Below the pieces are notes generated by a model. It ran no database searches and had not been told where the DNA came from. It was given only the letters and a program-made list of their open reading frames with translations. 46,162 nucleotides of DNA from Bacteroidales bacterium. GTDB lineage: Bacteria > Bacteroidota > Bacteroidia > Bacteroidales > F082. Below, in pieces: positions 5,697 to 20,547 of this stretch. Position 1 is the first letter of the stretch. Every line of letters starts with the position of its first letter. The translations under genes were made by a program, and so were the position numbers. The stretch covers positions 1 to 46,162 of the forward strand of contig JAFUAA010000053.1 in the NCBI GenBank assembly GCA_017460915.1, given 5' to 3'.

Positions 5697-5700
5697 GCCG

Positions 5701-5708
5701 TACTTTTG
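5701..5708 (+). promoter_or_regulatory. -7 box (TACTTTTG) of the GNAT gene
   Basis: TACTTTTG matches TAnnTTTG and leaves a leader of only about 10-20 nt before the start at 5722 or 5731. Confidence 0.55.
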
Positions 5709-5721
5709 CTGTCACATTCAG

Positions 5722-6249
5722 ATGAACACCATGCAATCCGAAAGAATCCTTCTCCGCCCTTGGCTCGAAAGCGATGCCGAGACTTTATACAAATACGCCA
5801 GCGACCCCGATGTGGGGCCGCGTGCCGGCTGGCCGCCGCACAAGTCAGCGGAGGAAAGCCTGGAAATCATCCGCACCGTTTTCCACAACGACCACACTTG
5901 GGCCATCGTACTCAAGGAAACCGGCGAGGCTATTGGTTGCATGGGCTATTATCCTCACGGCGAGAGCAATATCCATATCGGCGAGCAGGACGCGGAATTG
6001 GGCTATTGGGTCGCCAAGCCCTACTGGAACCAAGGCCTTTGCACCGAGGCGTTGCGGCTTATGATTGACTACTGCTTCAACCAAATGCGGTTCCAAACCC
6101 TTTGGAGTGATTTCTTCGTCAACAATACGGCATCGGGGCGTGTGATGCAGAAATGCGGCTTCCACGACACAGGCGAAACCAATTGGTGCAGCCATCTGTA
6201 TCACGGAGAGGAGGCTCCAGTAAAGATAATGAAGCTGGAAAAAGAATAA
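5722..6249 (+). CDS. GNAT-family N-acetyltransferase (RimJ/RimL-like)
   Basis: About 175 residues with the RimJ/RimL arrangement: ERILLRPW at the start, AIGCMGYY in the central strands, AELGYWVAKPYWNQGLCTEAL as the acetyl-CoA-binding segment, and NTASGRVMQKCGF near the C-terminus. It should transfer acetyl groups to a protein N-terminus or small amine. The start is ATG 5722 or the second ATG at 5731; there is no convincing ribosome binding site and the leader is very short. It is divergent from the ATPase gene and separated from it by the dispersed repeat. It stands upstream of the operator-controlled operon but is not part of it. Confidence 0.88.
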   Translation: MNTMQSERILLRPWLESDAETLYKYASDPDVGPRAGWPPHKSAEESLEIIRTVFHNDHTWAIVLKETGEAIGCMGYYPHGESNIHIGEQDAELGYWVAKPYWNQGLCTEALRLMIDYCFNQMRFQTLWSDFFVNNTASGRVMQKCGFHDTGETNWCSHLYHGEEAPVKIMKLEKE

Positions 6250-6262
6250 AAAAACGTTTGGA

Positions 6263-6276
6263 GTAACAAATGTTAC
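6263..6276. promoter_or_regulatory. Crp/Fnr-type operator GTAACAAATGTTAC (copy 1, flavodiiron operon)
   Basis: Perfect 6-bp arms GTAACA/TGTTAC around AA. The centre lies 29.5 bp upstream of the TATTTTTG box, so about -41 from the expected transcription start, the class II activator position. It covers the place where the -33 TTTG would be. The same 14 bp, at the same distance, precede hcp at 18813. The flanks are also shared: 44 of 49 bases from 6263 match. The most likely ligand is the HcpR-like regulator at 12998-13609; that link is inferred. Confidence 0.8.
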
Positions 6277-6298
6277 GCCCCTTTCCGTTGAAGGTGAA

Positions 6299-6306
6299 TA
6301 TTTTTG
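6299..6306 (+). promoter_or_regulatory. -7 box (TATTTTTG) of the flavodiiron operon
   Basis: TATTTTTG followed by a leader of about 25 nt. No TTTG lies 19-21 bp upstream, where the palindrome ends instead, which suggests activator dependence. Confidence 0.7.
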
Positions 6307-6334
6307 CAGCACTAAACAACTAAAAGACTGCAAA

Positions 6335-7021
6335 ATGAGTTACAACGACTGGAAAGACAAAACCGCCAACTTCAAGCAAATCGATGTGCGCGGTGTGCTA
6401 GGGAACTTCTTCCCCGGACTGAAAATGCAAGCCTCAAAAATGGCTGCTGGCGAAGGCATAACCATCATCCAAACCTTTGAGCCCATACCGCTTTACGAGG
6501 TAATGGAAGACCTTGGTTTTGAACACTATACCGAAAAGGTAGGCGAGGCCGAATACCACACCTATTTCTATCGCAAAGAAATGAAACAAGCTGAGAAAGA
6601 CATCCCGATGCGGCCTTACGCGCTCACCAATATGGCCTTGATTGACGACGACCTGGCCCAGACCGCCGTCAACTTCTGGGACCTGACTTGGAACGACAAC
6701 CGCCGTCACCTGCCTTACAAGATGCGCCTCTTGCTCTCGCTGACCAATGCCGTCGGTGCAGGAAGAATGCGCCAAGCCACGCGCGAGCTGGTGAAGGCAT
6801 ACATCCACGGCCTCGACAGCGCCGCCTTGGATGATGTGTTCGAACTGCTCGCCTGGAACCAAGGCATCGGCTATTTCAGCTCCGAAATCGGACCCTCTAC
6901 CCTATTTCAAGCCTACAAGACCATCAAACAGATGGAGAAAAAAGGCAACAGCCGCGCCGAAATCATTGAGGTGCTGAAAGAGAAATTCGGGGAGAAAAAT
7001 CCTGACATCAAGGTACAATAA
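6335..7021 (+). CDS. DUF2249 / AhpD-like two-domain protein of the NO-stress operon
   Basis: A 228-residue cytoplasmic protein. Residues about 15-85 (IDVRGVLGNFFP to YFYRKE, with FEPIPLYEVMEDLGF) match the DUF2249 fold, a TusA-like domain often encoded near denitrification and NO-handling genes. Residues about 100-215 resemble the all-helical carboxymuconolactone decarboxylase/AhpD family (ATRELVKAYIHGLDSAALDDVFELLAW) but lack the redox CxxC of AhpD. It is the first gene behind the GTAACA-TGTTAC operator and precedes a DUF1858 protein, a flavodiiron NO reductase and a ferredoxin. A role in nitrosative-stress response is inferred from this; the biochemical activity is unknown. Confidence 0.75.
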   Translation: MSYNDWKDKTANFKQIDVRGVLGNFFPGLKMQASKMAAGEGITIIQTFEPIPLYEVMEDLGFEHYTEKVGEAEYHTYFYRKEMKQAEKDIPMRPYALTNMALIDDDLAQTAVNFWDLTWNDNRRHLPYKMRLLLSLTNAVGAGRMRQATRELVKAYIHGLDSAALDDVFELLAWNQGIGYFSSEIGPSTLFQAYKTIKQMEKKGNSRAEIIEVLKEKFGEKNPDIKVQ

Positions 7022-7026
7022 CCATT

Positions 7027-7054
7027 GTAGAGACGCAAAATTTTGCGTCTCTAC
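7027..7054. repeat. perfect 28-bp palindrome inside the operon
   Basis: GTAGAGACGCAAAA and its exact reverse complement, with no spacer, lie between the DUF2249 and DUF1858 genes. GTAGAGACGC-type palindromes recur between genes in many bacterial genomes (REP-like). There is no T run, so it is more likely an mRNA-processing or stabilising hairpin or a mobile palindrome than a terminator. Confidence 0.8.
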
Positions 7055-7069
7055 CACAATAATACAATT

Positions 7070-7291
7070 ATGGAAATCACCAAAGAAACCAAATTAGCCA
7101 ACCTCATCGCCCAATATCCATGGCTGAAAGAGGAAATCGTGAAAGTGAACGAGAAGTTCAAGATGCTCAACTCGCCTATCGGCAAAATCATGATGGGCAA
7201 GGCCACCATCGCCGAGATGAGTAAGAAATCGGGGATGGAGGCGGAAGACATCATTGGCAGAATAATGGAATTGATCGAAAACCATAAATAA
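7070..7291 (+). CDS. DUF1858 domain protein
   Basis: A 73-residue protein made of a single DUF1858 domain: [19 protein letters not shown], then a short helix, [18 protein letters not shown] and a final helix. The domain resembles the N-terminal ScdA/RIC-type domain found in di-iron proteins that repair Fe-S clusters after NO damage. An upstream in-frame ATG at 7043 exists, but it lies inside the palindrome. ATG 7070 matches the family start. It ends 7 bp before the flavodiiron gene and is surely cotranscribed with it. A helper role in NO or Fe-S handling is an inference. Confidence 0.82.
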
Positions 7292-7298
7292 CGGAAAA

Positions 7299-8693
7299 AT
7301 GAGAAAACACGTAAAAGGACACGTCAGCTGGGTAGGTTACATCGACTGGGAACTGGAATCGTTCCACGGCGACGACTACTCCATCATGAACGGCTCAAGC
7401 CAAAACGCTTATCTGATCGAAGAAGAGAAAACCGTCCTCATCGACACGGTCTGGACGCCCCACCGCTTCGATTTCGTCGAAAACCTGAAAAAGGAAATCG
7501 ACCTGAACAAAATCGACTTCATCGTGGCCAACCATGGCGAGTGCGACCACAGCGGCTCGCTCACCGCACTGATGGAGGCCATCCCCAACACGCCCATCTA
7601 TTGCACCGCCAATGCCGTGAAAAGCATTGAAGGTCAATATGGCAAACGCGGTTGGAACTTCCACATCGTGAAGACTGGCGACAGTGTTGAAATCGGACGC
7701 GGAAAGAAACTGGTCTTCGTCGAGATGCGCATGTTGCACTGGCCCGACTCGATGGCCACCTACATGACCGGTGACGGCATCCTCTTCTCCAACGATGCCT
7801 TTGGCCAACACTACGCCGTCGAAGAACTCTTCAACGACAAGGCCGACCCATGCCTGCTCAACAAGGAGGCGATGAAGTATTTCGCCAATATCCTGAATCC
7901 TTTTGCCCCCATCCTGACCAAGAAATTGGAGGAAATCGCAGGTTTCAACCTGCCCATCGAGATGATTGCCCCGTCGCACGGTGCCCTCTGGCGCAGGAAC
8001 CCGCTGCAAATCGTGGAGAAATACGCGACCTGGGCCAAGACCTATCAAGAAGACCAAGTGACCATCGCCTACGACACGATGTGGGAAGGCACGACCAAAA
8101 TCGCACACCGCATCGCCGAGGAGATCCATCGCCAAAGTCCCAACACGGTGGTGAAGGTGTTCAACATCGCCAAAGCCGACAAGAACGAAATCATGACTGA
8201 GGTCTTCAAGTCGAAAGCCATCGCCGTAGGCTCACCCACCGTCAGCAACAGCATCCTTTCGTCCGTGGCGGGTTGGATGGAATTCCTCAAGCAACTGAAA
8301 TTCAAGAACAAGAAAGCTGCCGCCTTCGGCTGCTACGGCTGGAGTGGTGAATCAGTGAAACTATTGCAAGAGAAACTGAAAGATGCTGGTTTTGAGGTCA
8401 TCGACGAGAACATCCATGCCCCTTGGACACCCGAAGAGCAAGCCTTGGCAGGCATTCCTGAGTTGGTCAGGAATTTGCTTGGCCAAGCGGAAAAAGAAGA
8501 GCCTGCTGAGGTTGTGGCCAGCAACACCGATATGCCTAAATACCAGTGTGGTCCCTGCGGCTACGTCTACGACCCAACCAAAGGCGACCCCGACAGCGGC
8601 ATTGCCCCAGGCACACCTTTCGAGACCTTGCCTGACAATTGGCGCTGCCCCGTTTGTGGCGTAAGCAAGAATATGTTTCAAATGATGATGTAA
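7299..8693 (+). CDS. norV: flavodiiron NO/O2 reductase fused to rubredoxin (flavorubredoxin)
   Basis: A 464-residue three-module enzyme that reduces NO to N2O (or O2 to water) in anaerobes. The beta-lactamase-like domain holds all the usual di-iron ligands: H79, E81, D83 and H84 in HGECDH, then H147, D166 and H227. The flavodoxin domain (about 253-395) has the FMN loop following [12 protein letters not shown]. The C-terminal rubredoxin has C417, C420, C450 and C453, so electrons can reach FMN within one chain, as in NorV. It lies in an operator-controlled operon with a ferredoxin directly behind it. NO is the likely physiological substrate because hcp shares the operator. The symbol follows the domain layout, not proven orthology. 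Confidence 0.93.
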
Positions 8694-8705
8694 AAACCTA
8701 ACACA

Positions 8706-8888
8706 ATGAAGTACAGAGTAAACGACAGTTGCATCGGCTGCGGCCTTTGCGAATCCACCTGCCCCGAAGTGTTTTCCATCCAAGGCGATGTTGCCGTGGC
8801 CATCGAAGGCGATGTGCCAGAAAGTGCTTTGACTTCAGCCGCCGAAGCCAAGGACGGCTGCCCTGTGGGTGCCATTGAAGAAGCATAA
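8706..8888 (+). CDS. single [4Fe-4S] ferredoxin
   Basis: A 60-residue ferredoxin. Cluster ligands are C9, C12 and C15 in CIGCGLCESTCP, plus C52 in GCPVGAIEEA; C19 is an extra cysteine. The length and spacing match the one-cluster type known from Thermotoga. It starts 12 bp after the flavorubredoxin stop and ends the operon ahead of a strong terminator. It is probably the electron donor to the rubredoxin domain of its neighbour, which is inferred from position. Confidence 0.9.
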   Translation: MKYRVNDSCIGCGLCESTCPEVFSIQGDVAVAIEGDVPESALTSAAEAKDGCPVGAIEEA

Positions 8889-8912
8889 AGCAGTCTTTTT
8901 TTGATTCCACAC

Positions 8913-8952
8913 AAATCCGTAATCCAGGCGAAGGCTTAGATTGCGGATTTTT
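8913..8952 (+). terminator. intrinsic terminator of the flavodiiron operon
   Basis: AAATCCGTAATC (8913-8924) pairs with GATTGCGGATTT (8939-8950) over 12 bp with one G-T wobble, followed by a T run. Confidence 0.8.
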
Positions 8953-8985
8953 CGCTTCCTTACTTTCTATCTCATGAAAAATATC

Positions 8986-8993
8986 TATCTTTG
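8986..8993 (+). promoter_or_regulatory. -7 box (TATCTTTG) of the toxin-antitoxin remnant
   Basis: TATCTTTG matches TAnnTTTG and lies 27 bp before the ATG at 9021. Confidence 0.6.
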
Positions 8994-9020
8994 CCATCGA
9001 TAAAAGGAAAGGAACTGATT

Positions 9021-9365
9021 ATGAGTTACTCGGAAATGGCACAATTGGAACTGATGAATGCGGCCGCCAATGTCACCACTAAGGAAGACTTGGATGCTTT
9101 GAAACTGACTTTGTCGCTTTTCTTTGCCGAATTGGCGCAACGAGCCATCGACAAGCTGTGGGACGAGGGCAAGTTGGACCAAGCCAAGTTGGACGAACTG
9201 CGTGGACAACATTTGCGCAAGTTCGTGGATTGTGCCATTGCTGCAAGCGCCGACTACATCGTTACTGAAGACAATCATTTCAATCGGCTCAAATCGATTC
9301 CGTTCCCAAGGACGAGGATTCTGACTTTGGACGAATTCAATGCCGTTGAAAGGTACGACCTATGA
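9021..9365 (+). pseudogene. fused toxin-antitoxin remnant: antitoxin joined in frame to the end of a PIN toxin
   Basis: A 114-residue frame with a good ribosome binding site (AAAGGAAAGGA). Residues 1-66 look like a complete antitoxin of the type encoded before Bacteroidales PIN toxins (SEMAQLELMNAAANVTTKEDLDAL to DELRGQHLR). Residues 67-110 are the final third of a PIN-domain toxin (KFVDCAIAASADYIVTEDNHF to ILTLDEF). The first two thirds of the toxin, including its first catalytic aspartate, are missing. An in-frame deletion with its junction near 9219 explains this. The product cannot be an active nuclease. The antitoxin half may still be made and could bind DNA or neutralise related toxins. 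Confidence 0.75.
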
Positions 9366-9429
9366 AACATGGATCTCTGCCGTATTTGAAAAAAACACAA
9401 CAAAAACCTTGCAACTTTGAAAAATTGTG

Positions 9430-9437
9430 TACTTTTG
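9430..9437 (+). promoter_or_regulatory. -7 box (TACTTTTG) of the structured RNA
   Basis: TACTTTTG matches TAnnTTTG. No protein gene follows for 330 bp; a structured, terminator-ended RNA does. Confidence 0.6.
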
Positions 9438-9443
9438 CACCGA

Positions 9444-9708
9444 CAAAACACGAATAGTAACCCATAAAAACGAAACGAATATGCAATAAAAGCGCAGGAT
9501 TGCGTGAAATTGAAACTACATAAACAACAGCATTAAAACTGGATTCTTCTCCTATAAAATTTGCCGATTTTAAGAAGAGTTGAATGCATCCAATAGGTTT
9601 TAGTCAAGATGCTTACGTATTAGCGTGAGATTGACTTATTTCTTGTGGATGCAGGTTACGGCAAATACCTATAGGAGCGGGAAACGAGACGGTTTCACGC
9701 TTTTTTTT
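9444..9708 (+). ncRNA. rod-shaped non-coding RNA, candidate 6S RNA
   Basis: The region between promoter 9430 and the terminator at 9677 has no reading frame but folds into a long rod. The helices are CTCCTATA 9549-9556 with TATAGGAG 9670-9677, ATTTGCCG 9559-9566 with CGGCAAAT 9659-9666, TGCATCCA 9585-9592 with TGGATGCA 9646-9653, AGTCAA 9602-9607 with TTGACT 9631-9636, and CTTACG 9612-9617 with CGTGAG 9624-9629. The first four are perfect. A large asymmetric bubble (9567-9584 opposite 9654-9658) interrupts the rod, as in 6S RNA, which traps RNA polymerase. Alternatives are another conserved Bacteroidales RNA or a leader of the gene at 9771. The 5' end is approximate. Confidence 0.65.
9677..9708 (+). 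terminator. intrinsic terminator of the structured RNA
   Basis: GCGGGAAAC (9677-9685) pairs with GTTTCACGC (9692-9700) with one G-A mismatch, followed by T8. It ends the RNA 63 bp before the next gene. Confidence 0.8.
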
Positions 9709-9770
9709 GTGCTTGTTTGGAATAGGAACAAATCAATCAGACAAGTAATAACAACTAAAATCACAAAGAA

Positions 9771-10439
9771 ATGAAAAAGATTGGAATTATCATTCTAACA
9801 GCACTTGCTCTTATGGGTGGCTGTAAGACAAAAGAAAAGGTTCAAAAGCCTAAAGATGGAACTGTTGCGACAGACACAATCGCCTTGCAAGATTCAACGG
9901 CAATTACAACCGAAATTCCCGAGAGCGGTGTGGAGACCACACAAAGTGAAGATTTGGAAGAGCCTGTCGTGCCAAAAGAAAACACAACAGGCGAACCCAT
10001 AGTAGCGCACATCAACACAGTAGAGATATTGGCCACCATGCCTGAAACTGCCAAAGCAGAGGAAGCGCTTACGGCTTATGGGCAAGAGGTGGAAACCCAA
10101 ATCAAGGCCATGCTTGAGGAGTATCAGAAAAAGGTGGAGGAATTTGAGTCACAGCAGGATTCCCTGTCGGATTTGATGAAAAAGACCAAGGAAAACGAAA
10201 TCCTTGATTTGCAGAACCGCATTCAAATGTTCCAAGAGAATGCCGAGAAAGAGTTCGCCAGCAAACAAACTGCACTTTACGCGCCCATCAGGGAGAAACT
10301 GCAAAAGGCGATGAGAGTCGTCACTTTAGAGCAAGGGTATACTTACATGCTCGACATCACTTCTGGTGCCATTGTGTATATCGGCGACGATGCCATTGAC
10401 GCAACGCCATTGGTGAAGAAGAAACTGGGGTTAAAATAA
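9771..10439 (+). CDS. OmpH/Skp-like lipoprotein
   Basis: A 222-residue exported protein with a lipoprotein signal (MKKIGIIILTALALMGGC, lipidated C18). A Thr/Glu/Pro-rich linker follows (about 20-75). The rest resembles the OmpH/Skp periplasmic chaperone family: IAHINTVEILATMPE-like start (here IVAHINTVEILATMPE), a long coiled coil at about 95-175, and a short C-terminal segment. Classical Skp is soluble and has no linker, so this would be a membrane-tethered variant. It is the first gene of a three-gene unit; its TAA overlaps the ATG of the next gene by one base (TAATG). A role in envelope protein handling is inferred. Confidence 0.75.
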   Translation: MKKIGIIILTALALMGGCKTKEKVQKPKDGTVATDTIALQDSTAITTEIPESGVETTQSEDLEEPVVPKENTTGEPIVAHINTVEILATMPETAKAEEALTAYGQEVETQIKAMLEEYQKKVEEFESQQDSLSDLMKKTKENEILDLQNRIQMFQENAEKEFASKQTALYAPIREKLQKAMRVVTLEQGYTYMLDITSGAIVYIGDDAIDATPLVKKKLGLK

Positions 10440-11791
10440 TGGAATCAAACAAAAAAATGATGAAAAACATAAGATTATTATTGGTTTCTGCCCTGCTCGG
10501 TTTTGCTTCGAGCGGGGCTTGGGGACAAAACACGCAATGGGATGTTTACAATGTAATTCCATATTACAAGAACACTTCGTTTATCTTTGATTCACAAGAT
10601 GCCTGGGACGGATACTCTTTTTACAGCGAGTCACAAGGACTCAGGAAATATGATTCTGGGAAGAAACTTGGCTTTACCATTTATGATGATTATTCTGTGA
10701 CATTGGATTATTCTTCAACTATGCTTTTGTTCCGAGATGATTACAGATGGTCAAACATCCCAATACATATCAGCGGGACGGGAATAGTGAGATGGCAAAA
10801 TGACAGATTGGTAATTGACCTGAGTGTACAGACAAGCACCACTGGAGGGAGCGATCATGGGTCTAAATACGAAGGGACTAGACAAGGAGATGTTTATTCC
10901 ACAGAAGAGTATTCTTTCCCTTCCTATTCAGATACCAAGAAATACTCCTACGTTCTTGAATATGCAGACGGACAAGGTTTTAGGCTTATTGGCAACGATA
11001 TTATGTCCGTGATTACCGGAACTGACCATTTCTGGGCTGATAATGGAGTTTCAAGAGATGTGCCGATATACTATCAGATATGCCTCAAATTAACCCAACG
11101 ATTTTTCTATTTCAATGCAGTTGAAAAATCCCAAAGTGAATTGAATGAGCAAACTTCAGACCCATACGGAAAATGGCAGTGGAATGATGACAGAAGCGAA
11201 ATTCTCCTTGAATCAGCTCAAGAAGATGCAAATTGGGTCATTTGGAACCGTAAGAATAAAATAGGAAGTCTAAGAAACAGTATTGAAGATTTGGAGAATG
11301 ATACGACCTTGAGATGGGATTTGAAACAATCAATGATTGAAGGCACATACAGACAAATTCAAGAAATACAAGATTGTCCCATTACATGGGGTGTTGTCTT
11401 AAATAAAAACGGATCGGGATACAAAACTGAAATAACAGATGATGGAGAGGAATTGACTTATTTGATGATTCCATTTGATGGAGGATCGGAGCAAAGCTTT
11501 TCTTTTGTGGTAAATAGAGCGCAAGATGATTTAGATAATAATATGGCCAAAGCATTCCACGAAATACTTGCTAAAATGATTGATCAAGAAACCAATTATT
11601 CCAATCATCATACATATGAATATGTCCAATACGACCGCTTTATGGGCACACTGAAACGCGATGCGTCAATATTGAACCAAATCAAGGACAAACGCATCAT
11701 GATTGTGAACTACAAACAAAATGGCTCAGACAAAACTACCACGTTCCAATTGGAAGGCTTGGAAGCCATCTATAATGCGATAACACAATGA
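10439..11791 (+). CDS. secreted protein of unknown function
   Basis: A 450-residue protein with a signal peptide (KNIRLLLVSALLGFASSGAWGQ). The mature part is rich in aromatic, Asp and Ser residues and looks beta-rich. I recognise no domain. Translation may start at ATG 10439, coupled to the previous stop, or at ATG 10457/10460, which gives a more typical signal peptide. It overlaps the next gene by 4 bp (ATGA). Being held between an OmpH-like lipoprotein and a CsgG-like protein suggests a joint envelope function. Its A+T-rich codon use stands out from the GC-richer genes to the left, hinting at a different history. Confidence 0.7.
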   Translation: MESNKKMMKNIRLLLVSALLGFASSGAWGQNTQWDVYNVIPYYKNTSFIFDSQDAWDGYSFYSESQGLRKYDSGKKLGFTIYDDYSVTLDYSSTMLLFRDDYRWSNIPIHISGTGIVRWQNDRLVIDLSVQTSTTGGSDHGSKYEGTRQGDVYSTEEYSFPSYSDTKKYSYVLEYADGQGFRLIGNDIMSVITGTDHFWADNGVSRDVPIYYQICLKLTQRFFYFNAVEKSQSELNEQTSDPYGKWQWNDDRSEILLESAQEDANWVIWNRKNKIGSLRNSIEDLENDTTLRWDLKQSMIEGTYRQIQEIQDCPITWGVVLNKNGSGYKTEITDDGEELTYLMIPFDGGSEQSFSFVVNRAQDDLDNNMAKAFHEILAKMIDQETNYSNHHTYEYVQYDRFMGTLKRDASILNQIKDKRIMIVNYKQNGSDKTTTFQLEGLEAIYNAITQ

Positions 11792-12927: not shown

Positions 12928-12997
12928 AACGACCTTACACTAATCCATTTTGCCTATTGGTTGGACTCCATCAAACACAATATGCGTTTACTGTGCC

Positions 12998-13609
12998 TTA
13001 CTTCTTCCGAACTACCCCATTCTCCGTCCGTTCCACCAGACCCTCGTCTTGAAGGTCGGCGATGAGGCGGCTGAGCGAGGGGCGGGCCACCCCAAGCATC
13101 TCGGCGGCTTCGGCCACATTGGTGATGGCGCCATGCTGACGGATGTAGTCCAACACGCGGTCGCGGAGGCTCTTCACGGCGAAACTCCTCACCTTGTTGC
13201 TGAGGAAATGGCTGCGGTCGGAAAGGGCTTCCAGAAATCCGCGCAGCACCTCGGGGTGCGCCGTCATAAAATTGAAGAACGCCTCGCGGTGGATGTACCA
13301 CACCACGCCGTCGGTCGTCATCGAGACCTCGACGGGAATGGTGTTGTTTTTCGCGAAAAGGAATGCAGGTGCCAGAATCTTAGGCGCTTGCATTCTTTCT
13401 ATCACCACTTCCTTTCCGCTTTGCGCGCCCATCCGCGACTCGATGCCGCCCTCAGCGAGCAGCATCAACCATTCGCAGGTGTCGCCCACGCGCACCACCT
13501 TGTCGCCTGCCTTGTACGTCTTGCGGCGGTAAGGCAAAGCCAAAAGTTCCTCCAGCATCGCCTCCGTGCAAGAGGAAAACATCTCGAATCGTTGCAGTTC
13601 CTCGATCAT
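12998..13609 (-). CDS. Crp/Fnr-family transcription regulator, HcpR-like candidate
   Basis: A 203-residue regulator. Residues about 5-120 form the cyclic-nucleotide-type sensor barrel (YKAGDKVVRVGDTCEWLMLLAEGGIE is typical), then a dimer helix. Residues about 150-203 are a winged helix-turn-helix (NVAEAAEMLGVARPSLSRLI). There is no FNR-type N-terminal cysteine set. The start is ATG 13609, after GGAAG and downstream of a good promoter; longer frames would read through that promoter. It lies between the two GTAACA-TGTTAC promoters (6.7 kb from one and 5.2 kb from the other). In Bacteroidetes such a protein (HcpR) senses NO through haem and activates hcp. I infer the same role here. Confidence 0.82.
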   Translation of the reverse strand: MIEELQRFEMFSSCTEAMLEELLALPYRRKTYKAGDKVVRVGDTCEWLMLLAEGGIESRMGAQSGKEVVIERMQAPKILAPAFLFAKNNTIPVEVSMTTDGVVWYIHREAFFNFMTAHPEVLRGFLEALSDRSHFLSNKVRSFAVKSLRDRVLDYIRQHGAITNVAEAAEMLGVARPSLSRLIADLQDEGLVERTENGVVRKK

Positions 13610-13627
13610 CTTCCTTGGTTTTTGCAG

Positions 13628-13657
13628 CAAAATTAGGAATTTTCGCAATAGAACAAA
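13628..13657 (-). promoter_or_regulatory. promoter of the Crp/Fnr regulator gene
   Basis: On the minus strand TTTG (13654-13657), an 18-bp spacer, then TAATTTTG (13628-13635). The start codon is 19 bp downstream of the box. It has no GTAACA-TGTTAC site. Confidence 0.65.
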
Positions 13658-13662
13658 CTGGC

Positions 13663-13709
13663 ATTTTTGTTTTATCAGCCATACTTTTTCGCTTTTTTTC
13701 AAGAAAATC
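13663..13709. repeat. dispersed 47-48 bp repeat, copy 2
   Basis: Matches 5649-5696 apart from one substitution and one T-run length difference. It lies immediately upstream of the regulator promoter and 4 bp beyond the 3' end of the ABC exporter gene. Confidence 0.75.
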
Positions 13710-13712
13710 ACA

Positions 13713-15443
13713 TTAGATATTCCATTCAAGGGCGTTACGCTGAATATCCTGCATCCGCTTGTAGAAGCCGCCAGATGCGGTGAGCGAGGCGGGAGATCCT
13801 GACTCTTCTACCTTCCCTTCTTTCAGGACTACGATCTTGTCCGCACCAGCAACGGTCCGCATCCGATGCGCGATGATAATCACGGTCTTGTCCTTCACCA
13901 GACGGGACAACGACTCCTGAACGAAGGTCTCGTTCTCCACATCCAGAGAAGCGGTGGCTTCGTCCAGCAGGATGATGGGGGCGTCTTTAAGGAAGGCGCG
14001 GGCAATGGATATGCGCTGGCGTTCGCCTCCAGACAGCTCGCTGCCGTTCTCCCCGATGAGGCTGTCCCAACCATCGGGCAACTTCTCGGCGAAGACATCC
14101 ACGTGCGCCAGCCGTGCGGCGGCGATGACCTCCTCGTCGGTGGCGTCCTTCCGTCCGATCCGGATGTTCTCCAATACAGTGTTGTTGAACAAGATGACAT
14201 CCTGGAATACGATGGAATATAGGCCCATCAGTGTTTCAGGGTCAATTTTGGAGATATCCATCCCACCCACCGTGATGGAGCCTGAAGGGATGTCCCAGAA
14301 GCGGGATGCCAGACGGGAGATGATGGTCTTGCCGGAACCAGACGGGCCGATGAGCGCCGTCACCTCACCCTGCCAGGCCGTGAAGGTGACACCGTCCAGC
14401 ACTGTCTCAGACGAGTCGTAGGCGAAGCTGACATCCTTGAATTCTATGTCATAGCCTTTGTTGGAAAGAGCCTCCACGCCACGCTGCTCTTCATGGCAAA
14501 GGATCTCATCCATCCGTTCACACTGGATGCCAAGCGAAACGGTCGCACCCAGAGTGATCAATGAGTTGGACATGGGATCATAGAGCCGGGAAGCCACCAG
14601 CAGGAACATAAAGAAAGTCAGTACATCCAGACTTCCATGCGTAAGCAGATAGGCGCCGGTAAGGGCGACGGTGGCAATCCCCAGTTTCAGGACCATCTGT
14701 CCGCTGACAACGAAATAGGCCACGCCCAGTTCCGCCTGCACGGCACGCTTCTCCACGAGGTCTATTTTTGGCCAAAGGTCTTTCAGGTACTTCTCCTCGG
14801 CATCGTTTGCCCGGATATCCTGGAAAGCCTCCAATCCTTCTTGGATATGGTCGGCCAGATCCACCGTCGCCTGCACGTTGCGGCGGTTATAGCGGTTCTG
14901 GATTTTGGCGGAGAAGAGGACGATGGACATCGCTACAGGAATCACCCAGACGGCGGCAAAGGCCATCCTCCACTCGAAGAAGAAAAGGCTGACGCCGATG
15001 AGCGTGGTGGAAATCATCGAGCCGATGAGTTCAGGCACCCAATGGGACGTTCCGGTCTCGATGGTGGCCGCATCGGCCATGATGGTGCTGGTGAGGTCGG
15101 CCAAATCTTTCTTGCCGAAGAAGGACAGCGGGAGACGGCGCAGTTTCTCTGCCAGCGATATCCTCCGTCGGCCGCTTTCCATGTAAACGGTGGTAAACTG
15201 GAAGTTGTATTTGACGTATTCCATCGCGGTAATAGCCAACAGACAGGCACCGACTTTCCAAACATATCCCCAGACATTGAGAGGTGTTTCTTCCATCAGG
15301 TCTTTTACCAGACAATACATAAGGACAACTGGCAGCATGAGGACAATGTCCATCGCAGCACAGGCAACGCAGGATTTTACAAGATCTTTCGCTCCTTGCT
15401 CTGAAGCGGCATATTTATGGCGTATGGTGTTGATGATACTCAT
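13713..15443 (-). CDS. ABC exporter half-transporter, second subunit (fused permease and ATPase)
   Basis: A 576-residue type IV ABC exporter half: six transmembrane helices in residues about 20-320, then an ATPase with Walker A GPSGSGKT, signature LSGGERQR, Walker B IILLDEAT and the H-loop IIAHR. I chose ATG 15443 (MSIINTIRHKY), which overlaps the stop of the upstream gene (ATGA), not the ATG at 15482 inside that gene. With its partner at 15440-17200 it should form a heterodimer. The pair is closest in style to the IrtAB/YbtPQ group, linked to siderophore or lipid-peptide transport. The substrate is unknown. Confidence 0.9.
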   Translation of the reverse strand: MSIINTIRHKYAASEQGAKDLVKSCVACAAMDIVLMLPVVLMYCLVKDLMEETPLNVWGYVWKVGACLLAITAMEYVKYNFQFTTVYMESGRRRISLAEKLRRLPLSFFGKKDLADLTSTIMADAATIETGTSHWVPELIGSMISTTLIGVSLFFFEWRMAFAAVWVIPVAMSIVLFSAKIQNRYNRRNVQATVDLADHIQEGLEAFQDIRANDAEEKYLKDLWPKIDLVEKRAVQAELGVAYFVVSGQMVLKLGIATVALTGAYLLTHGSLDVLTFFMFLLVASRLYDPMSNSLITLGATVSLGIQCERMDEILCHEEQRGVEALSNKGYDIEFKDVSFAYDSSETVLDGVTFTAWQGEVTALIGPSGSGKTIISRLASRFWDIPSGSITVGGMDISKIDPETLMGLYSIVFQDVILFNNTVLENIRIGRKDATDEEVIAAARLAHVDVFAEKLPDGWDSLIGENGSELSGGERQRISIARAFLKDAPIILLDEATASLDVENETFVQESLSRLVKDKTVIIIAHRMRTVAGADKIVVLKEGKVEESGSPASLTASGGFYKRMQDIQRNALEWNI

Positions 15444-17200
15444 TTTATATTCCATTTGACTGATTTTACATACTGTTTCCACATAGCAGCGTACTTGCCA
15501 CCCTTTTCAAGGAGAGCCTTGTGCGTCCCGCTTTCCGTGATGCGGCCGTCCTCCATCACATAGATGCAGCCGGCGCCGGTTACGGAGGAGAGTCGGTGCG
15601 CAATCATGACGAGTGTCTTTCCAGACGCGGCCATCTCGGAGAAAGCCTGCTGGACACGGGTCTCGTTGTCCGGGTCGGCAAAGGCGGTTGCCTCGTCCAA
15701 GATGACGATGGGCGTATCCTTCAGCATCACACGGGCGATGGCCACGCGCTGCTGCTCACCACCAGAGAGATAAGTCCCTTTGGTGCCGATGACGGTGTCG
15801 ATGCCTTGGGGAAGCTTGGCGAGGATATCGTCGCACTGAGCCCTGTGCAGAGCGTCCAACACCTGCTCGCGCGTGGCATCGGGCTTGCCCAGGCGGACAT
15901 TTTCAAGGATGCTGGTCTTCATCAGGTGGCTATCCTGAAAAACGAAGGAAATACGGTTCATAAGGTCCTGCTTTCGGATATGACGGATGTCCACACCGCC
16001 GAGAGTTATGGCACCTTCCGTGACATCAAAAAAACGTGCCATCAGACTGGCCGTCGTGGTCTTTCCGCCCCCAGAAGGGCCCACAAGGGCGATTTTCTGT
16101 CCCGGCCTGACTGTAAGGGAAACACCGTCAACAGCATAACTGGAAGCCCCTGGATAACGGAAACGGACATTCTTAAGAGCCATCTCATTATCCTCCGATA
16201 ACATGGCTTCGGAAGGTTCAGACAATGGGTCGATTGAGAGAATCTGACCAGTTTTGTCCAGTGCTTCGGCCACAATCATTTCGTTCTCGCTGGCAAACAT
16301 GATGCGGTTGAGCGTGACGGCAATGGCAGGCGTAACAATAATATAATAAAGGAGGTTCATAAGGAACTGTCCATCCACTGCACCATCCTTGGCCACATAA
16401 AGCGTCAGGCCGATGAGGACGGCGAAGGAGGCATTGACCAGCACCGTGTAGAGCACCATCGGAATACGCAAATCCAGCGTGTAGGAAATCACCCATTTCT
16501 GGTACTGATCGATGGATTCCTTGAAGCGCTTGAAGGAGAAGACCGATTGGCCGAAGGTTTTCACCACTGGTATGCCGCGGACATATTCCACCGCCTCGTT
16601 GGACATGTTGTCCAGCGCCTTGTTGTATTGGCCCATTCTCTTCTTCAGAAACGGCCCAGTCATCAAGGTCATCATCACGATAAGGGCCAGCGCCACGGTG
16701 CCCAGACACAGGAGACCCATCCGCCAGTCAAATAGAAACATCAGCACGGCCAGGCCCAGCATGGTGGCGTACATGCCGGCCTTGTCAGGAAGTTGGTGCG
16801 CAAGGTAAGTCTCTGTGGATTGGGTGGATTCCTGCACCCATTTGCGGACTTTTCCGCTGCCAAGGGAGTCCAGAAAGCCGATGGGAAGCGTCGTGATATG
16901 CCGCATCAAGGCCTTCCGCATGTTTGCGGCAATCCGGAATGCCGCCATGTGGGAACACATCAGTCCGCCGAAGTATACGACAATGGAGGCAATCGCGAAT
17001 GCTACGGCCATCCAGCCATAGTAGGCAATCCGGCTGTAATCTCCAGCTGTCACATCCCGCAGGATGGCCCAGATATACAGAAAAGGAACAAGGGTCAGGA
17101 GTTGGCTGATGCCCACAATCACCATAGAAAGATAGGTCAGGACCTTTCTTTTTCCAGCATAAGCCAGGAGTTGTGGGAGTAGTTTTTCTTTCTTTTTCAT
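15440..17200 (-). CDS. ABC exporter half-transporter, first subunit (fused permease and ATPase)
   Basis: A 586-residue half-transporter with six membrane helices (about residues 20-315) and an ATPase with Walker A GPSGGGKT, signature LSGGEQQR, Walker B IVILDEAT and the H-loop MIAHR. The D-loop region EATAFADPDNE is of the sort seen in IrtA/YbtP-like transporters. It lies 19 bp after the methyltransferase gene and overlaps its partner by 4 bp, so methyltransferase and both transporter halves form one operon. No peptide precursor or siderophore synthase is nearby, so the cargo cannot be named. Confidence 0.9.
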   Translation of the reverse strand: MKKKEKLLPQLLAYAGKRKVLTYLSMVIVGISQLLTLVPFLYIWAILRDVTAGDYSRIAYYGWMAVAFAIASIVVYFGGLMCSHMAAFRIAANMRKALMRHITTLPIGFLDSLGSGKVRKWVQESTQSTETYLAHQLPDKAGMYATMLGLAVLMFLFDWRMGLLCLGTVALALIVMMTLMTGPFLKKRMGQYNKALDNMSNEAVEYVRGIPVVKTFGQSVFSFKRFKESIDQYQKWVISYTLDLRIPMVLYTVLVNASFAVLIGLTLYVAKDGAVDGQFLMNLLYYIIVTPAIAVTLNRIMFASENEMIVAEALDKTGQILSIDPLSEPSEAMLSEDNEMALKNVRFRYPGASSYAVDGVSLTVRPGQKIALVGPSGGGKTTTASLMARFFDVTEGAITLGGVDIRHIRKQDLMNRISFVFQDSHLMKTSILENVRLGKPDATREQVLDALHRAQCDDILAKLPQGIDTVIGTKGTYLSGGEQQRVAIARVMLKDTPIVILDEATAFADPDNETRVQQAFSEMAASGKTLVMIAHRLSSVTGAGCIYVMEDGRITESGTHKALLEKGGKYAAMWKQYVKSVKWNIK

Positions 17201-17219
17201 GTTATATGGTTATTTATTA

Positions 17220-18044
17220 CTATTTCTTCCCTTGCAAAATCGCAGAGCCTCTACCCATCATCCATGTGGATTCCCAAGGAGTCATGAACGTGCCGTCGTC
17301 GGTGGGAATGAGTTCCACTTCCTCATAACCCATGTCTTTCAATTTCTGCACGAAGGCTTGCATGTCCCCATAGTTGATGTGAGAGAAAATGTCATGTATG
17401 GCAAAGGTTCCGCCTTTTTTCAGTACGCGCAAGGTTTCTAAAAGGATGGCCTGCCTGTCACGGCTGGGAATATTGTGATAGACATAGTTACTCGTGACGG
17501 CATCAAACATTTCGTCGGGGAAGTCCAATCTCAAGGCATTGCCTTTGACGAATCGGATGTTGCTCACTCCTTCCGCTTTTGCATTTTCTTGGCAGAGCGA
17601 TTTGCTGTAAGAAGCGTATTCCTTTCCCCATCGGTCAATGCCCGTTATTAAGGCGTTGGGATTTCGCTTCGCGACGGCAATGGTCAATGCGCCGCTCCCA
17701 CAGCCCACATCAAGTCCCCAACCGCCGTAGGGCACGGTCACTCGTTCGGCAACGCCCTCGATAATCCGACGTGACATCTGTCGCTTGCCGTTGTAAGAAA
17801 AGGCACGATACATCAGCCACATCCACAGCGTGGCCAATGACAACACGATGGCAAGGACGAGGAACAGGATTTTCAGTACCGTCTTCAATACTCCGGCGGC
17901 AATCAGTCCGCTCATGCCGAAAACAAGGAACAGTACCAAACAGCCGAGACTGCCCGCTAGTGCCCCCACAACCAAGCCTTTGGGCATCCAGTTTTTGTAG
18001 TTTGGTTGCATAATCAGGTTACTTTTTCTGGTTTTTGTTTCCAT
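17220..18044 (-). CDS. membrane-anchored class I SAM-dependent methyltransferase
   Basis: A 274-residue protein. Two transmembrane helices occupy about residues 20-80. A Rossmann methyltransferase domain follows: motif I GLDVGCGSG, acidic loop ITGIDRW, motif IV-like FDAVTSNYVYHNI, and LRVLKKGGTFAIHD. Most enzymes of this family are soluble, so the N-terminal anchor points to a lipid, quinone or membrane-bound product as substrate. ATG 18044 is used; ATG 18011 would shorten it without losing the helices. It leads the ABC exporter operon, and modification of the cargo before export is a reasonable inference. Confidence 0.85.
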   Translation of the reverse strand: METKTRKSNLIMQPNYKNWMPKGLVVGALAGSLGCLVLFLVFGMSGLIAAGVLKTVLKILFLVLAIVLSLATLWMWLMYRAFSYNGKRQMSRRIIEGVAERVTVPYGGWGLDVGCGSGALTIAVAKRNPNALITGIDRWGKEYASYSKSLCQENAKAEGVSNIRFVKGNALRLDFPDEMFDAVTSNYVYHNIPSRDRQAILLETLRVLKKGGTFAIHDIFSHINYGDMQAFVQKLKDMGYEEVELIPTDDGTFMTPWESTWMMGRGSAILQGKK

Positions 18045-18163
18045 GTTGTTTGATTTTAGTTTATTATTGATTTGTTTGTTTCAATATACGAAGACAAAGC
18101 CCTGATAGCAACGTATCCCTTGGGGCATGTCATTTCATGGCGTGCTATTTTTGTTTTCGCTTG

Positions 18164-18171
18164 CAAAATTA
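18164..18171 (-). promoter_or_regulatory. -7 box (TAATTTTG) of the methyltransferase-exporter operon
   Basis: Minus-strand TAATTTTG, about 120 bp upstream of ATG 18044, which would leave a leader of roughly 110 nt. The leader shows no gene. Confidence 0.45.
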
Positions 18172-18240
18172 TAGAATGTGCAAATCGCTGGAAATCACCA
18201 TTTATGGGGATTTTTTGATTGAGGTTTCATCATTTTATTG

Positions 18241-18248
18241 TATTTTTG
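18241..18248 (+). promoter_or_regulatory. -7 box (TATTTTTG) of the second GNAT gene
   Basis: TATTTTTG matches TAnnTTTG and lies 15 bp before the ATG at 18264, so the leader is very short. Confidence 0.55.
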
Positions 18249-18263
18249 TGTCCAAAAAAAATA

Positions 18264-18761
18264 ATGATAAAGTTACGTCCATACATGAAATGTGATGCTG
18301 CCACTGTTGTTTCGTGGATTGGCGATGAGATTTCCTTCAGAAAATGGAGCTCGGTCCAGTTCGACCATTATCCCATTACGGCAGAGGACCTAATCCGCCA
18401 TTATGACGCTTTCGCCGATTCAGACAACTACCATCCGATGATAGCCTTTGACGAGACGGGCATCATAGGGCACCTGCTCATGCGTTTCACCGACGAAGGG
18501 AAATCCGTACTCCGTTTTGGCTTCATCATTGTTGACGACAAGAAGCGTGGCATGGGCCTCGGAAAACAAATGCTTGCATTGGCCATCAGATACGCTTTTG
18601 AGATACTGAAAGCGAAAAAGATCACGCTCGGAGTCTTTGAAAACAACGAGCCAGCACATCAATGCTACAAAGCCCATGGCTTTCAAGACACTGACATAGT
18701 GAAAACTCATCACATCCTGGACGAGGAATGGAAATGTCGCGAGATGGAACTGATCGGATAA
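18264..18761 (+). CDS. GNAT-family N-acetyltransferase
   Basis: A 165-residue acetyltransferase starting MIKLRPYMKCDAATVVSWI. The acetyl-CoA-binding segment is VDDKKRGMGLGKQMLALAIRYAFE, and ENNEPAHQCYKAHGF is the typical C-terminal motif. The ATG at 18219 is rejected because it lies upstream of the promoter box. It ends 51 bp before the operator of hcp and has its own promoter, so it need not belong to the NO regulon. The substrate is unknown. Confidence 0.88.
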   Translation: MIKLRPYMKCDAATVVSWIGDEISFRKWSSVQFDHYPITAEDLIRHYDAFADSDNYHPMIAFDETGIIGHLLMRFTDEGKSVLRFGFIIVDDKKRGMGLGKQMLALAIRYAFEILKAKKITLGVFENNEPAHQCYKAHGFQDTDIVKTHHILDEEWKCREMELIG

Positions 18762-18812
18762 GCAATGACGATAAAGCACAACCTCAAACCCTTGAAATCT
18801 TTTTTCCTACCG

Positions 18813-18826
18813 GTAACAAATGTTAC
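18813..18826. promoter_or_regulatory. Crp/Fnr-type operator GTAACAAATGTTAC (copy 2, hcp)
   Basis: Identical over 14 bp to 6263-6276, with the same 29.5 bp from centre to the TATTTTTG box. It too replaces the expected -33 TTTG. Placement before hcp, the classical target of HcpR regulators, is the strongest argument for the assignment. Confidence 0.85.
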
Positions 18827-18848
18827 GCCCCGTCCTGTTCAAGGTGGA

Positions 18849-18856
18849 TATTTTTG
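18849..18856 (+). promoter_or_regulatory. -7 box (TATTTTTG) of hcp
   Basis: TATTTTTG 29.5 bp downstream of the operator centre, with GCAGCA immediately after it as at the flavodiiron promoter. The leader is about 26 nt. Confidence 0.7.
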
Positions 18857-18885
18857 CAGCAATATTCATCAAAAACAGCATAGCA

Positions 18886-20547
18886 ATGAACGAGAAGATG
18901 TTTTGTTTCCAATGTCAGGAAACCGCCGGCGGCACCGGCTGCAAGATTTCGGGCGTGTGCGGCAAAAGCCCCGAGGTGGCTCACGCACAAGACCTGCTGA
19001 TTTATGTCCTCAAAGGTTTGGGCGTCATCGCCAACCACCACCAACACGGCTGCGGCCACGATTACTGCGATTTTCGCAAGAGCATCCACGCCTTCGTGAA
19101 CGACGCCTTGTTTTCGACCATCACCAACGCCAACTTCGATGTCGAGAGCATCTACAACCGCATCGACGAAGGCCTGAAACTGCGCGACACCTTCAAGGAC
19201 CGCGTTGTCAACAAGAAAGGCATCGCCCTGCCGAGCCTTGATGTGCTGGGATGGAACGGCACCCGCGCCGACTACGACGCCAAAGCCCAACAAGTGGGTG
19301 TGTTGGCCGAAGCCAACGAGGACATCCGCTCCCTCAAGGAACTGACGATATACGGCCTGAAAGGTATGGCCGCCTATCTGGAACACGCCGCCCGCCTCGG
19401 TCAGGTGGATGGCGACAACAACGAATACATCCTCCAAACCCTCGGTCAGTTGGCGACCTGCAACGATGCCGACGCCCTCACCGCCCTCGCGCTGAAGACG
19501 GGCGAATGGGGCGTGAAGGCGATGGCCCTGCTCGACAAGGCCAACACCACCGCCTACGGCAACCCCGAAGTCACGGAGGTGAACATTGGCGTGGGCAACC
19601 GCCCGGGCATCCTCGTCAGCGGCCACGACCTCAACGACATCGAGCAACTGCTCGAACAAAGCAAGGACGCAGGCATCGACATCTACACCCATAGCGAGAT
19701 GCTGCCTGCTCATTATTATCCTAAACTCAAGAAATACAGCCACCTGCGCGGCAACTACGGCAACGCCTGGTGGAAGCAACGCGAAGAGTTCAGCACCTTC
19801 AACGGTCCCATCCTCTTCACCACCAACTGCATCGTGCCGCCTACGGCCAATGCCAACTACAAAGACCGCGTGTTCACCACCAACAGCACGGGCTTCCCGG
19901 GCTGGAAGCACATCCCCGCCGATGCCAACGGCAAGAAGGACTTCAGCGAAATCATCGCCTTGGCCAAGACCTGCGCTGTGCCTACCGAGATTGAAACCGG
20001 CAAAATCGTTGGTGGTTTCGCCCACGAGCAGGTGTTTGCTGTGGCCAACAAGGTGGTGAAAGCCGTCAAGAGCGGCGCCATCCGCAAATTCATCGTTATG
20101 GCAGGTTGCGACGGCCGCATGAAGAGCCGCCAATACTACACAGAATTCGCCCAACGTCTGCCCAAGGATTGCGTCATCCTCACTGCAGGTTGTGCCAAGT
20201 ACAAGTACAACAAGCTCGGCCTTGGCGACATCAACGGCATTCCGCGCGTGCTCGACGCCGGTCAGTGCAACGACAGCTATTCATTGGCCCTCATCGCCCT
20301 AAAGCTTAAGGATGTGTTTGGCCTCGACGACGTCAACCAGCTGCCGATCGTGTATAACATCGCTTGGTACGAACAGAAGGCTGTCATCGTGCTGCTCGCC
20401 CTGCTTAGCCTCGGCGTGAAGGACATCCACCTCGGGCCCACTTTGCCGGGCTTCCTCTCACCCAACGTGGCCCATGTCTTGGTGCAGAACTTCGGCATCG
20501 GCGGGATCACCTCTGTTGACGAGGGCATGAAACTGTTCGGGATTTAA
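18886..20547 (+). CDS. hcp: hybrid cluster protein (hydroxylamine reductase family)
   Basis: A 553-residue Hcp (prismane protein). The N-terminal cubane ligands are C7, C10, C19 and C25 ([13 protein letters not shown] ... GVCGK, spacing CX2CX8CX5C). Downstream motifs of the hybrid Fe-S-O cluster region are present, including CNDSYS and the final LGPTLPGF. Hcp reduces NO to N2O and has hydroxylamine reductase activity; it protects anaerobes from nitrosative stress in the cytoplasm. ATG 18886 is the family start. It is transcribed alone, behind the GTAACA-TGTTAC operator and ahead of a terminator, and no hcr reductase gene is adjacent. Confidence 0.96.

What the first reader, a model, noticed from the sequence alone, without database searches (positions are those of the whole stretch)
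6263..20547. Two identical Crp/Fnr operators tie a flavodiiron operon and hcp into one nitrosative-stress regulon
GTAACAAATGTTAC occurs at 6263 and 18813, both with the centre exactly 29.5 bp before TATTTTTG, both replacing the -33 TTTG, and with 44 of 49 flanking bases shared. I noticed no third copy. One drives DUF2249/AhpD-DUF1858-flavorubredoxin-ferredoxin, the other hcp. A Crp/Fnr regulator lies between. HcpR regulators of hcp are established in anaerobes; that this protein binds this motif, and that the operon of small unknown proteins belongs to the regulon, is inferred.
Basis: partly seen in the sequence, partly recalled or inferred. Interest (0 to 1): 0.82.

Follow-up and report, generated by a model that had tools for sequence, protein, structure and literature searches.

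The report
Shared nitric-oxide switch for two operons
In a gut-type Bacteroidales bacterium one DNA switch, very probably read by the nitric-oxide sensor HcpR, stands before both the defence gene hcp and an operon of poorly known redox proteins; relatives of that operon's first protein occur in other gut bacteria, often under a different switch set at the same distance.

Summary
GTAACAAATGTTAC at 6263 and 18813 are the only exact GTAACANNTGTTAC sites in the 2.98 Mb assembly, each centred 29.5 bp before TATTTTTG. One PF00027 (Crp/Fnr sensor) protein was found, that of 12998-13609; its best solved relative is P. gingivalis HcpR, and its recognition helix has the proline of the HcpR2 group, whose published motif is GTAACnnnnGTTAC. 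The link to hcp is thus known (2005); the operon is the new part. In 99 genomes of the genus all 74 strict site-plus-promoter matches lie before hcp, the DUF2249-DUF1858 operon (once a remnant of it) or hcpR; 22 of 22 full-length DUF2249 genes have one. DUF2249-DUF1858 is the constant core, ferredoxin common, the flavodiiron gene occasional; in 4 of 26 Bacteroidota loci hcp follows in the same run. The DUF2249 protein recurs at 65-81% identity in other phyla: 0 of 54 loci have this motif, 24 carry TGTATCN4GATACA, and 22 of those have a -10 box at the same 29.5-bp distance. The 44/49 promoter identity is peculiar to this species, probably a copied promoter. Binding, NO induction and the DUF2249 function are untested; Pfam does not support 'AhpD'.

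The parts
6263..6276 (+). HcpR2-type operator GTAACAAATGTTAC of the DUF2249 operon
   Evidence: present at 22 of 22 orthologous full-length genes in the genus
6299..6306 (+). -7 box TATTTTTG, 22 bp after the operator; no -33 TTTG
6335..7021 (+). DUF2249 protein, 228 aa, with a conserved C-terminal half that matches no Pfam family
7070..7291 (+). DUF1858 protein, 73 aa
   Evidence: E 3.6e-07, just under the curated cut-off
7299..8693 (+). flavodiiron protein with C-terminal rubredoxin domain (flavorubredoxin type), the only PF19583 match in the genome
8706..8888 (+). ferredoxin, 60 aa
12998..13609 (-). HcpR, Crp/Fnr regulator, 203 aa, the only PF00027 match in the genome
13628..13635 (-). -7 box TAATTTTG of hcpR with a TTTG 22 bp upstream and no HcpR site; probably HcpR-independent expression in this species
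18813..18826 (+). HcpR2-type operator GTAACAAATGTTAC of hcp
   Evidence: 29 of 29 hcp genes of the high-identity clade that have their 5' end and their own promoter carry it in the genus
18849..18856 (+). -7 box TATTTTTG of hcp; no -33 TTTG
18886..20547 (+). hcp, hybrid cluster protein
   Evidence: TIGR01703 711.8 bits, cut-off 360.8

Best explanation
The regulator at 12998-13609 is an HcpR of the HcpR2 group. When it senses NO, most likely through heme, its dimer binds GTAACANNTGTTAC. It covers the place where a Bacteroidetes promoter would have its -33 box and contacts RNA polymerase beside the -7 box TAnnTTTG, from a centre 29.5 bp upstream of that box (roughly -41, the class II position; the transcription start is not mapped). 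It thereby switches on two units together: hcp, and the DUF2249-DUF1858-flavodiiron-ferredoxin operon. The flavodiiron protein and Hcp would reduce NO, the ferredoxin would feed electrons, and DUF2249 plus DUF1858 would be accessory proteins of that pathway. Shown by sequence: the sites, geometry, gene linkage and conservation. Inferred: binding, activation, the NO signal, and all enzyme roles in this organism.
For: Only one PF00027 protein found in the genome; best solved relative P. gingivalis HcpR 9day, E 5.7e-23; the heme-linked Met68 of that protein aligns with M60 here (residue numbers of the chain converted by my own count), invariant in 10 of 10 aligned HcpRs. Helix residues R-P-S-L-x-R are invariant, and the published HcpR2 motif with Pro at position 181 is GTAACnnnnGTTAC. 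Only these two of 52 near-sites in the genome have the promoter geometry. In the genus 74 of 74 strict matches lie before hcp (29), the DUF2249 gene (22), the ferredoxin of an operon remnant (1) or hcpR (22); the backward control pattern gave 10 matches in the same 99 genomes. Gap 22 in 52 of 52 such structural-gene sites but 17-23 on the hcpR side. Site and HcpR co-occur: 29 both, 3 site only, 9 HcpR only, 58 neither. In 4 of 26 Bacteroidota loci hcp follows DUF2249-DUF1858 in one run. In another family of the order a site precedes a ferredoxin and a DUF1858-DUF2249-DUF2249 fusion.
Against: No binding or expression data for this organism. His149, the other proposed heme contact of P. gingivalis HcpR, aligns with Arg here. 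3 of 32 genomes with the site lack a detected HcpR, and 9 of 38 with HcpR lack the strict site, though several are fragmentary. The 99 genomes are related, so the counts are not independent. Outside the genus, in the rest of the family, the pattern is no commoner than its control (16 against 14 places), though half of those regions hold hcpR. One search limited the gap to 17-27, and two further sites before DUF2249 (L068, and L085 where the gene is cut) have no strict box; the protein-anchored set (25 of 27 sites at 22, gaps 0-59 scanned) is free of the limit. Flavodiiron proteins can also reduce O2, so the signal could be broader than NO.
Confidence: 0.82

Rival explanations
1. HcpR represses both promoters: it blocks the -33 region and NO releases it.
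For: The operator covers the -33 region and neither promoter has another -33 box.
Against: With no -33 TTTG the promoter would be weak without an activator. The gap is fixed at 22 in 52 of 52 strict structural-gene sites but loose on the hcpR side, and the same centre distance recurs with another operator and -10 type in 22 of 24 sites. In B. thetaiotaomicron hcpR deletion abolished hcp transcription (PMC13370916, sections 6-8 and passages), and C. difficile HcpR activates frdX-hcp on NO (PMC12915319, passages).
Confidence: 0.08
2. An antisense RNA at the hcp promoter, like the reported SnoA of B. thetaiotaomicron, pairs with both near-identical promoters here and helps HcpR; the 44/49 identity is kept for that reason.
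For: The spacers of the two window promoters share 17 of 22 bases, the maximum among 378 cross pairs (mean 8.7; two pairs reach 17); SnoA is reported antisense to the hcp promoter.
Against: No TAnnTTTG box lies on the minus strand between 18171 and 20966. In 15 other genomes with both promoters on held loci the spacers share only 5-9 of 22 bases. The operon promoter of the nearest relative matches the window hcp promoter at 41 of 49, which fits copying.
Confidence: 0.05
3. The shared 49 bp are a recent copy of the operon promoter placed before hcp, so the identity by itself says little about function; the regulon is real for other reasons. Compatible with the best explanation.
For: Identity stops at both ends of the 49 bp; the best cross pairs are window hcp with the window (44) and L067 (41) operon promoters, while L067's own pair shares 31.
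Against: The direction of copying rests on one close relative.
Confidence: 0.65

Closest known systems
HcpR2 regulon, Rodionov et al. 2005 (PMC1274295)
   Same: Crp/Fnr regulator with Pro at position 181, motif GTAACnnnnGTTAC, hcp as target; HcpR regulons of other groups are said often to contain ferredoxin-like genes (passages)
   Different: There the HcpR2 regulons of most Bacteroides contain only hcp; here a DUF2249-DUF1858-flavodiiron-ferredoxin operon is included, and the 22-bp gap to TAnnTTTG is defined
B. thetaiotaomicron HcpR-SnoA-hcp (preprint PMC13370916)
   Same: HcpR required for hcp, heme binding, nitrite induction (outline, sections 6-8 and passages)
   Different: No canonical antisense promoter found at the window hcp promoter, no nrfA match in the genome, an added operon
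C. difficile frdX-hcp under HcpR (PMC12915319)
   Same: HcpR activates hcp and an Fe-S protein gene on NO (passages)
   Different: A two-gene unit; no DUF2249 or flavodiiron gene appears in the passages seen
DrpA/DrpB of Thermus and haloarchaeal DUF2249 proteins (PMC6282519, PMC11218638)
   Same: DUF2249 (and in DrpB DUF1858) domains tied to nitrogen-oxide respiration (passages)
   Different: Denitrifiers, with a proposed nitrate-sensing role; here a 228-aa protein with an extra conserved half, in anaerobes

Membership tests
HcpR2 group of Crp/Fnr regulators | cNMP-binding-type sensor domain plus Crp-type HTH | tested here: met
   PF00027 37.0 bits (cut-off 27.5), PF13545 29.0 (27.0)
HcpR2 group of Crp/Fnr regulators | no FNR-type four-cysteine cluster | tested here: met
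   only two cysteines, C14 and C45, in the 203 residues (alignment)
HcpR2 group of Crp/Fnr regulators | proline in place of Glu181 in the recognition helix | tested here: met
   G-V-A-R-P-S-L-S-R, P177 invariant in 10 of 10; the mapping to CRP numbering is my own
HcpR2 group of Crp/Fnr regulators | GTAACnnnnGTTAC before hcp | tested here: met
HcpR2 group of Crp/Fnr regulators | heme-dependent NO sensing | not testable with these tools
   only residue conservation: Met68 counterpart kept, His149 counterpart not
NorV-type flavorubredoxin (NCBIfam PRK05452) | score over the equivalog cut-off | tested here: not met
   611.7 against 711 bits; the domain set ODP-flavodoxin-rubredoxin is met
AhpD/CMD-like protein (claimed for the DUF2249 gene) | CMD or AhpD domain by profile | tested here: not met
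   no Pfam match up to E 10 in the C-terminal half; a fold comparison could not be run
HcpR-SnoA module | antisense RNA from within the hcp promoter | tested here: inconclusive
   no minus-strand TAnnTTTG between 18171 and 20966; no RNA data

The most novel reading that the evidence does not exclude
The DUF2249 protein, with DUF1858, ferredoxin and at times a flavodiiron protein or Hcp, is the core of an uncharacterised nitric-oxide defence cassette that has spread between phyla of gut anaerobes. In each host it is wired to a local HcpR-type regulator with its own operator (GTAACN4GTTAC in Bacteroidota, TGTATCN4GATACA in many Bacillota) and its own promoter type, but at the same centre distance of 29.5 bp. 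The DUF2249 protein would be a core NO-handling or repair component rather than a bystander.
Probability: 0.3. Interest if true: 0.65.

Novelty: new variant of a known kind. Interest (0 to 1): 0.5.

Why it matters
It gives an unstudied protein pair (DUF2249 and DUF1858) a specific, testable place in anaerobic nitric-oxide defence, and a test case for how a transferred gene set is rewired to a host's own regulator while the activator-to-polymerase distance stays fixed. Gut and rumen anaerobes meet NO and nitrite, and how they cope beyond Hcp is poorly mapped.

Tried and rejected
A third member of the regulon: none among the 52 near-sites of the genome. My first reading of them saw only 50, because the listing stops at 100 lines, and counted two twice; I fetched the rest of contigs C77-C79 and recounted 52 unique places. 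The two single-mismatch sites, G000:C1:16152 and C21:59111, have no -7 box at the right distance. Another Crp/Fnr protein: PF13545 has two more matches over its cut-off, but one frame is a 159-aa protein with a C-terminal winged helix and the other the end of an ATP-binding-type protein split over frames, with no sensor domain that I can see (my reading). nrfA as an HcpR target: no match in this genome. A GTAACN4GTTAC-like site (up to 2 mismatches) within 1.5 kb upstream of DUF2249 outside Bacteroidota: 0 of 54 loci. A first palindrome scan 300 bp upstream of those genes showed no common palindrome beyond three loci with TGTATCN4GATACA, because the DUF2249 gene is not first in most of those operons. 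My first -10 scan broke ties in favour of gap 21, so I repeated it without that bias. Sequence search for a solved relative of the DUF2249 protein: nothing credible (best E 0.6). Literature searches: nothing on this operon under HcpR in the passages I saw of the seven papers opened; the others were seen only as listings, so this is no proof of absence. One search was too broad to be of use.
Full report
Observation. Each centre is 29.5 bp before TATTTTTG, and neither promoter has TTTG in the -33 window. The 49 bp from the start of the motif agree at 44 positions; leaving out the motif itself, 30 of 35. In the window alone the motif count is unremarkable against shuffles when 3 mismatches are allowed (6 found, 2.86 expected). 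In the whole 2.98 Mb assembly (79 contigs, 95.7% complete) the two sites are the only exact GTAACANNTGTTAC. I read the surroundings of all 52 places with up to two mismatches, both orientations: only the two window sites have TAnnTTTG, or a form of it with one mismatch, at gap 22; one other place has TAnnTTTG at gap 28.

Regulator. The protein of 12998-13609 is the only PF00027 match in the genome. PF13545 (HTH_Crp_2) gave six matches, three over the cut-off, one of them this protein; the other two do not look like Crp/Fnr proteins. Its best solved relative is P. gingivalis HcpR (9day, E 5.7e-23; then 5v30/6np6). Met68, reported as important for heme binding in that protein (PMC12750200, passages), aligns with M60 here by my count of the chain; His149 aligns with an arginine. 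M60 and the helix residues R176, P177, S178, L179 and R181 are invariant in ten HcpRs from the genus and family. Rodionov et al. 2005 (PMC1274295, passages) define HcpR2 by a proline at position 181 and give its motif as GTAACnnnnGTTAC; a search for that string found only this paper. They state that HcpR2 regulons of most Bacteroides contain only hcp. In the window hcpR has its own TTTG/TAATTTTG promoter and no operator.

Comparison within the genus. I searched 173 genomes of the family for the motif followed within 17-27 bp by TAnnTTTG: 44 of 173 match. In the 99 genomes of the window's genus, 32 match with 74 places; the pattern read backwards gave 10 places in the same 99. Gene mapping by tblastn puts all 74 before hcp (29), the DUF2249 gene (22), the ferredoxin of an operon in which DUF2249 was not found (1) or hcpR (22). 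In the other 74 genomes of the family there are 16 places against 14 for the backward pattern, so no excess by number; of the 12 regions that hold them, 6 hold hcpR and 6 none of the query genes (L055, L060, L095, L096, L099, L100), which are probably chance. The gap is 22 in all 52 strict structural-gene sites of the genus; on the hcpR side it is 17 (4), 18 (14), 19 (2), 22 (1) and 23 (1). Two further palindromes before DUF2249, a second one in L068 and that of L085 where the gene is cut, have no strict box.

Anchored on proteins instead of the pattern: 22 genomes have a full-length DUF2249 gene (81-100% identical), and 22 of 22 have the site. Of 30 high-identity hcp genes of the genus whose 5' end is present, 29 have their own site; the thirtieth, G140 (L094), lies in the run DUF2249-DUF1858-ferredoxin-hcp behind one site. 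Six genomes of the genus (G085, G086, G087, G088, G090, G092) have a diverged hcp (57-61%), no detected HcpR and no site near it. In other genera, seven genomes (G158-G164) and G039 have an hcp without a site in the upstream sequence held (L122 holds only 5 bases upstream); G158-G164 do have weak Crp/Fnr-type matches in longer frames. G033 has the exact palindrome between hcpR and hcp, without a strict box on the hcp side. Site and HcpR (E 1e-30 or better) across the 99 genomes of the genus: 29 both, 3 site only (G057, G099, G127), 9 HcpR only (G044, G063, G084, G097, G101, G106, G115, G120, G130), 58 neither; Fisher p 6e-14, but the genomes are related, several are incomplete, and G044 and G084 are only 38-39% identical, so the number overstates independence. 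G063 has the exact palindrome without a strict -7 box.

Operon make-up. In the 26 Bacteroidota loci of the second collection DUF1858 follows DUF2249 in 26 of 26 and ferredoxin is found in 19 of 26 (three others end at the contig edge before it could be seen: L126, L139, L149). The flavodiiron gene follows in L124, L130, L143 and L145; L124 and L130 are the same contigs, by length, as L067 and L093 of the first set, the only two besides the window there. Hcp follows in the same run in L144, L147, L148 and L149 (L147 is L094). So DUF2249-DUF1858 is the constant part.

Wider. In 393 genomes of the order the stricter pattern (gap 22-23) matched 67, with 86 listed places against 10 for the backward pattern. 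I examined 26 of the new loci (L204-L229): 22 of 26 hold a relative of HcpR, Hcp, the ferredoxin, DUF1858 or DUF2249; L210, L215, L217 and L223 hold none. In L206 the site is followed by a ferredoxin and a DUF1858-DUF2249-DUF2249 fusion that runs on into a further domain. In L104 (G024) DUF2249 and DUF1858 are fused in a protein near a 50%-identical DUF2249 protein, without a site in the locus. Such fusions support a shared job.

Other phyla. A scan of one genome per species found 118 loci encoding a relative of the DUF2249 protein; the best 80 were kept. Of 27 sites there, 25 have TAnnTTTG at gap 22 only (gaps 0-59 scanned); L144 has CATTTTTG at that place, and L136 has an extra upstream site without a box. 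The other 54 loci carry labels of Bacillota, Spirochaetota, Synergistota, Chloroflexota and Planctomycetota, at 65-81% identity, and 0 of 54 have the Bacteroidota motif. Most are metagenome bins, so some labels may be binning errors, but named records such as Fretibacterium fastidiosum (69%) are among them. A tree of 81 proteins puts the 27 close Bacteroidota rows together with moderate support (85/86) beside 43 mostly Bacillota rows, with other phyla scattered among them (L104 lies far out; bootstrap not settled). This fits transfer between phyla; the direction is open.

The neighbours vary in these 54 loci: DUF1858 was found in 11, ferredoxin in 16, a flavodiiron relative of 80% or more in 8 (some partial) and Hcp in 4, although many contigs are short. 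In L177 the run is Fe-S protein, DUF2249, DUF1858, cupin, ferredoxin and a partial flavodiiron gene, divergent from a Crp/Fnr gene; L173 and L174 have full-length flavodiiron matches. The L177 regulator's best solved relative is again P. gingivalis HcpR, though narrowly (1.3e-13 against 5.1e-13 for the next). TGTATCN4GATACA was noticed in three loci and in five of six regions printed. Scanning all 54 loci, 24 have it, once each, always upstream of the DUF2249 gene, in 434 kb; those eight are included. Without tie-breaking, over gaps 5-40, 22 of 24 have a TATAAT-like box (5 of 6 or better) at gap 21, which puts the centre 29.5 bp before it; four sites also match at gap 8 and one at 9. The divergent side shows mainly gaps 19 (7) and 20 (15). 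So a different operator and a different -10 type share the distance seen in Bacteroidota. 30 of 54 lack this palindrome; five of these hold under 850 bp upstream (L169, L178, L180, L194, L196), L150 and L162 have another one, and the rest were not explained.

The 44/49 identity. Among 21 distinct hcp and 18 distinct DUF2249 promoters (378 cross pairs) the mean is 31.5 of 49, sd 3.4; the window pair is the maximum, and the next is the window hcp promoter against the operon promoter of the nearest relative (41). In 15 other genomes with both promoters on held loci (27 loci, 12 of them the same contigs fetched twice) the pair shares 28-32 of 49 and 5-9 of 22 spacer bases. A recent copy of the operon promoter onto hcp is the simplest reading.

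Mechanism. A dimer centred 29.5 bp before the -7 or -10 box, with a fixed gap and no -33 box, is the class II arrangement of Crp/Fnr activators (established knowledge; the transcription start is not known here). HcpR is required for hcp in B. thetaiotaomicron (PMC13370916, outline, sections 6-8 and passages) and activates frdX-hcp on NO in C. difficile (PMC12915319, passages). DUF2249 proteins are linked to denitrification in Thermus (PMC6282519, passages) and haloarchaea (PMC11218638, passages). HcpR1 of Desulfovibrio binds another motif, and flavodiiron proteins are discussed as part of NO defence there (PMC5701242, passages). The role of the DUF2249 protein is inference.

Verdict. The hcp half is known; the operon half, the strict geometry and the cross-phylum parallel were not met in my searches, which saw most papers only as listings.

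Noticed in passing
window 5653-6249 and 18219-18761; L067:12759-13337: A GNAT acetyltransferase gene lies directly upstream of each operator in the window, and in the nearest relative a 57% relative of the first one lies upstream of hcp, which hints at recombination between the two places.
   Followed up: no
L085:8186-8294: In G114 the operon promoter region runs straight into the 3' part of the DUF2249 gene, as after an internal deletion; DUF1858 and ferredoxin remain.
   Followed up: no
L083:3192-3583: In G109 the operon promoter is kept but only the ferredoxin was detected behind it; DUF2249 and DUF1858 were not found there.
   Followed up: no
L104:2699-7123: A related genus has a flavodoxin-like gene (my reading of the sequence), a 50%-identical DUF2249 protein and a DUF2249-DUF1858 fusion close together without an HcpR-type site in the locus.
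   Followed up: partly
L150 and L162, upstream of the DUF2249 gene: Another palindrome, ATGTGGTTnnAACCACAT, stands before the same gene in two Bacillota loci, suggesting yet another operator.
   Followed up: no
L108-L113: Six genomes of the genus carry a diverged hcp (57-61%) without HcpR or its site; five of them (not L112) share nearly the same sequence upstream of hcp.
   Followed up: no
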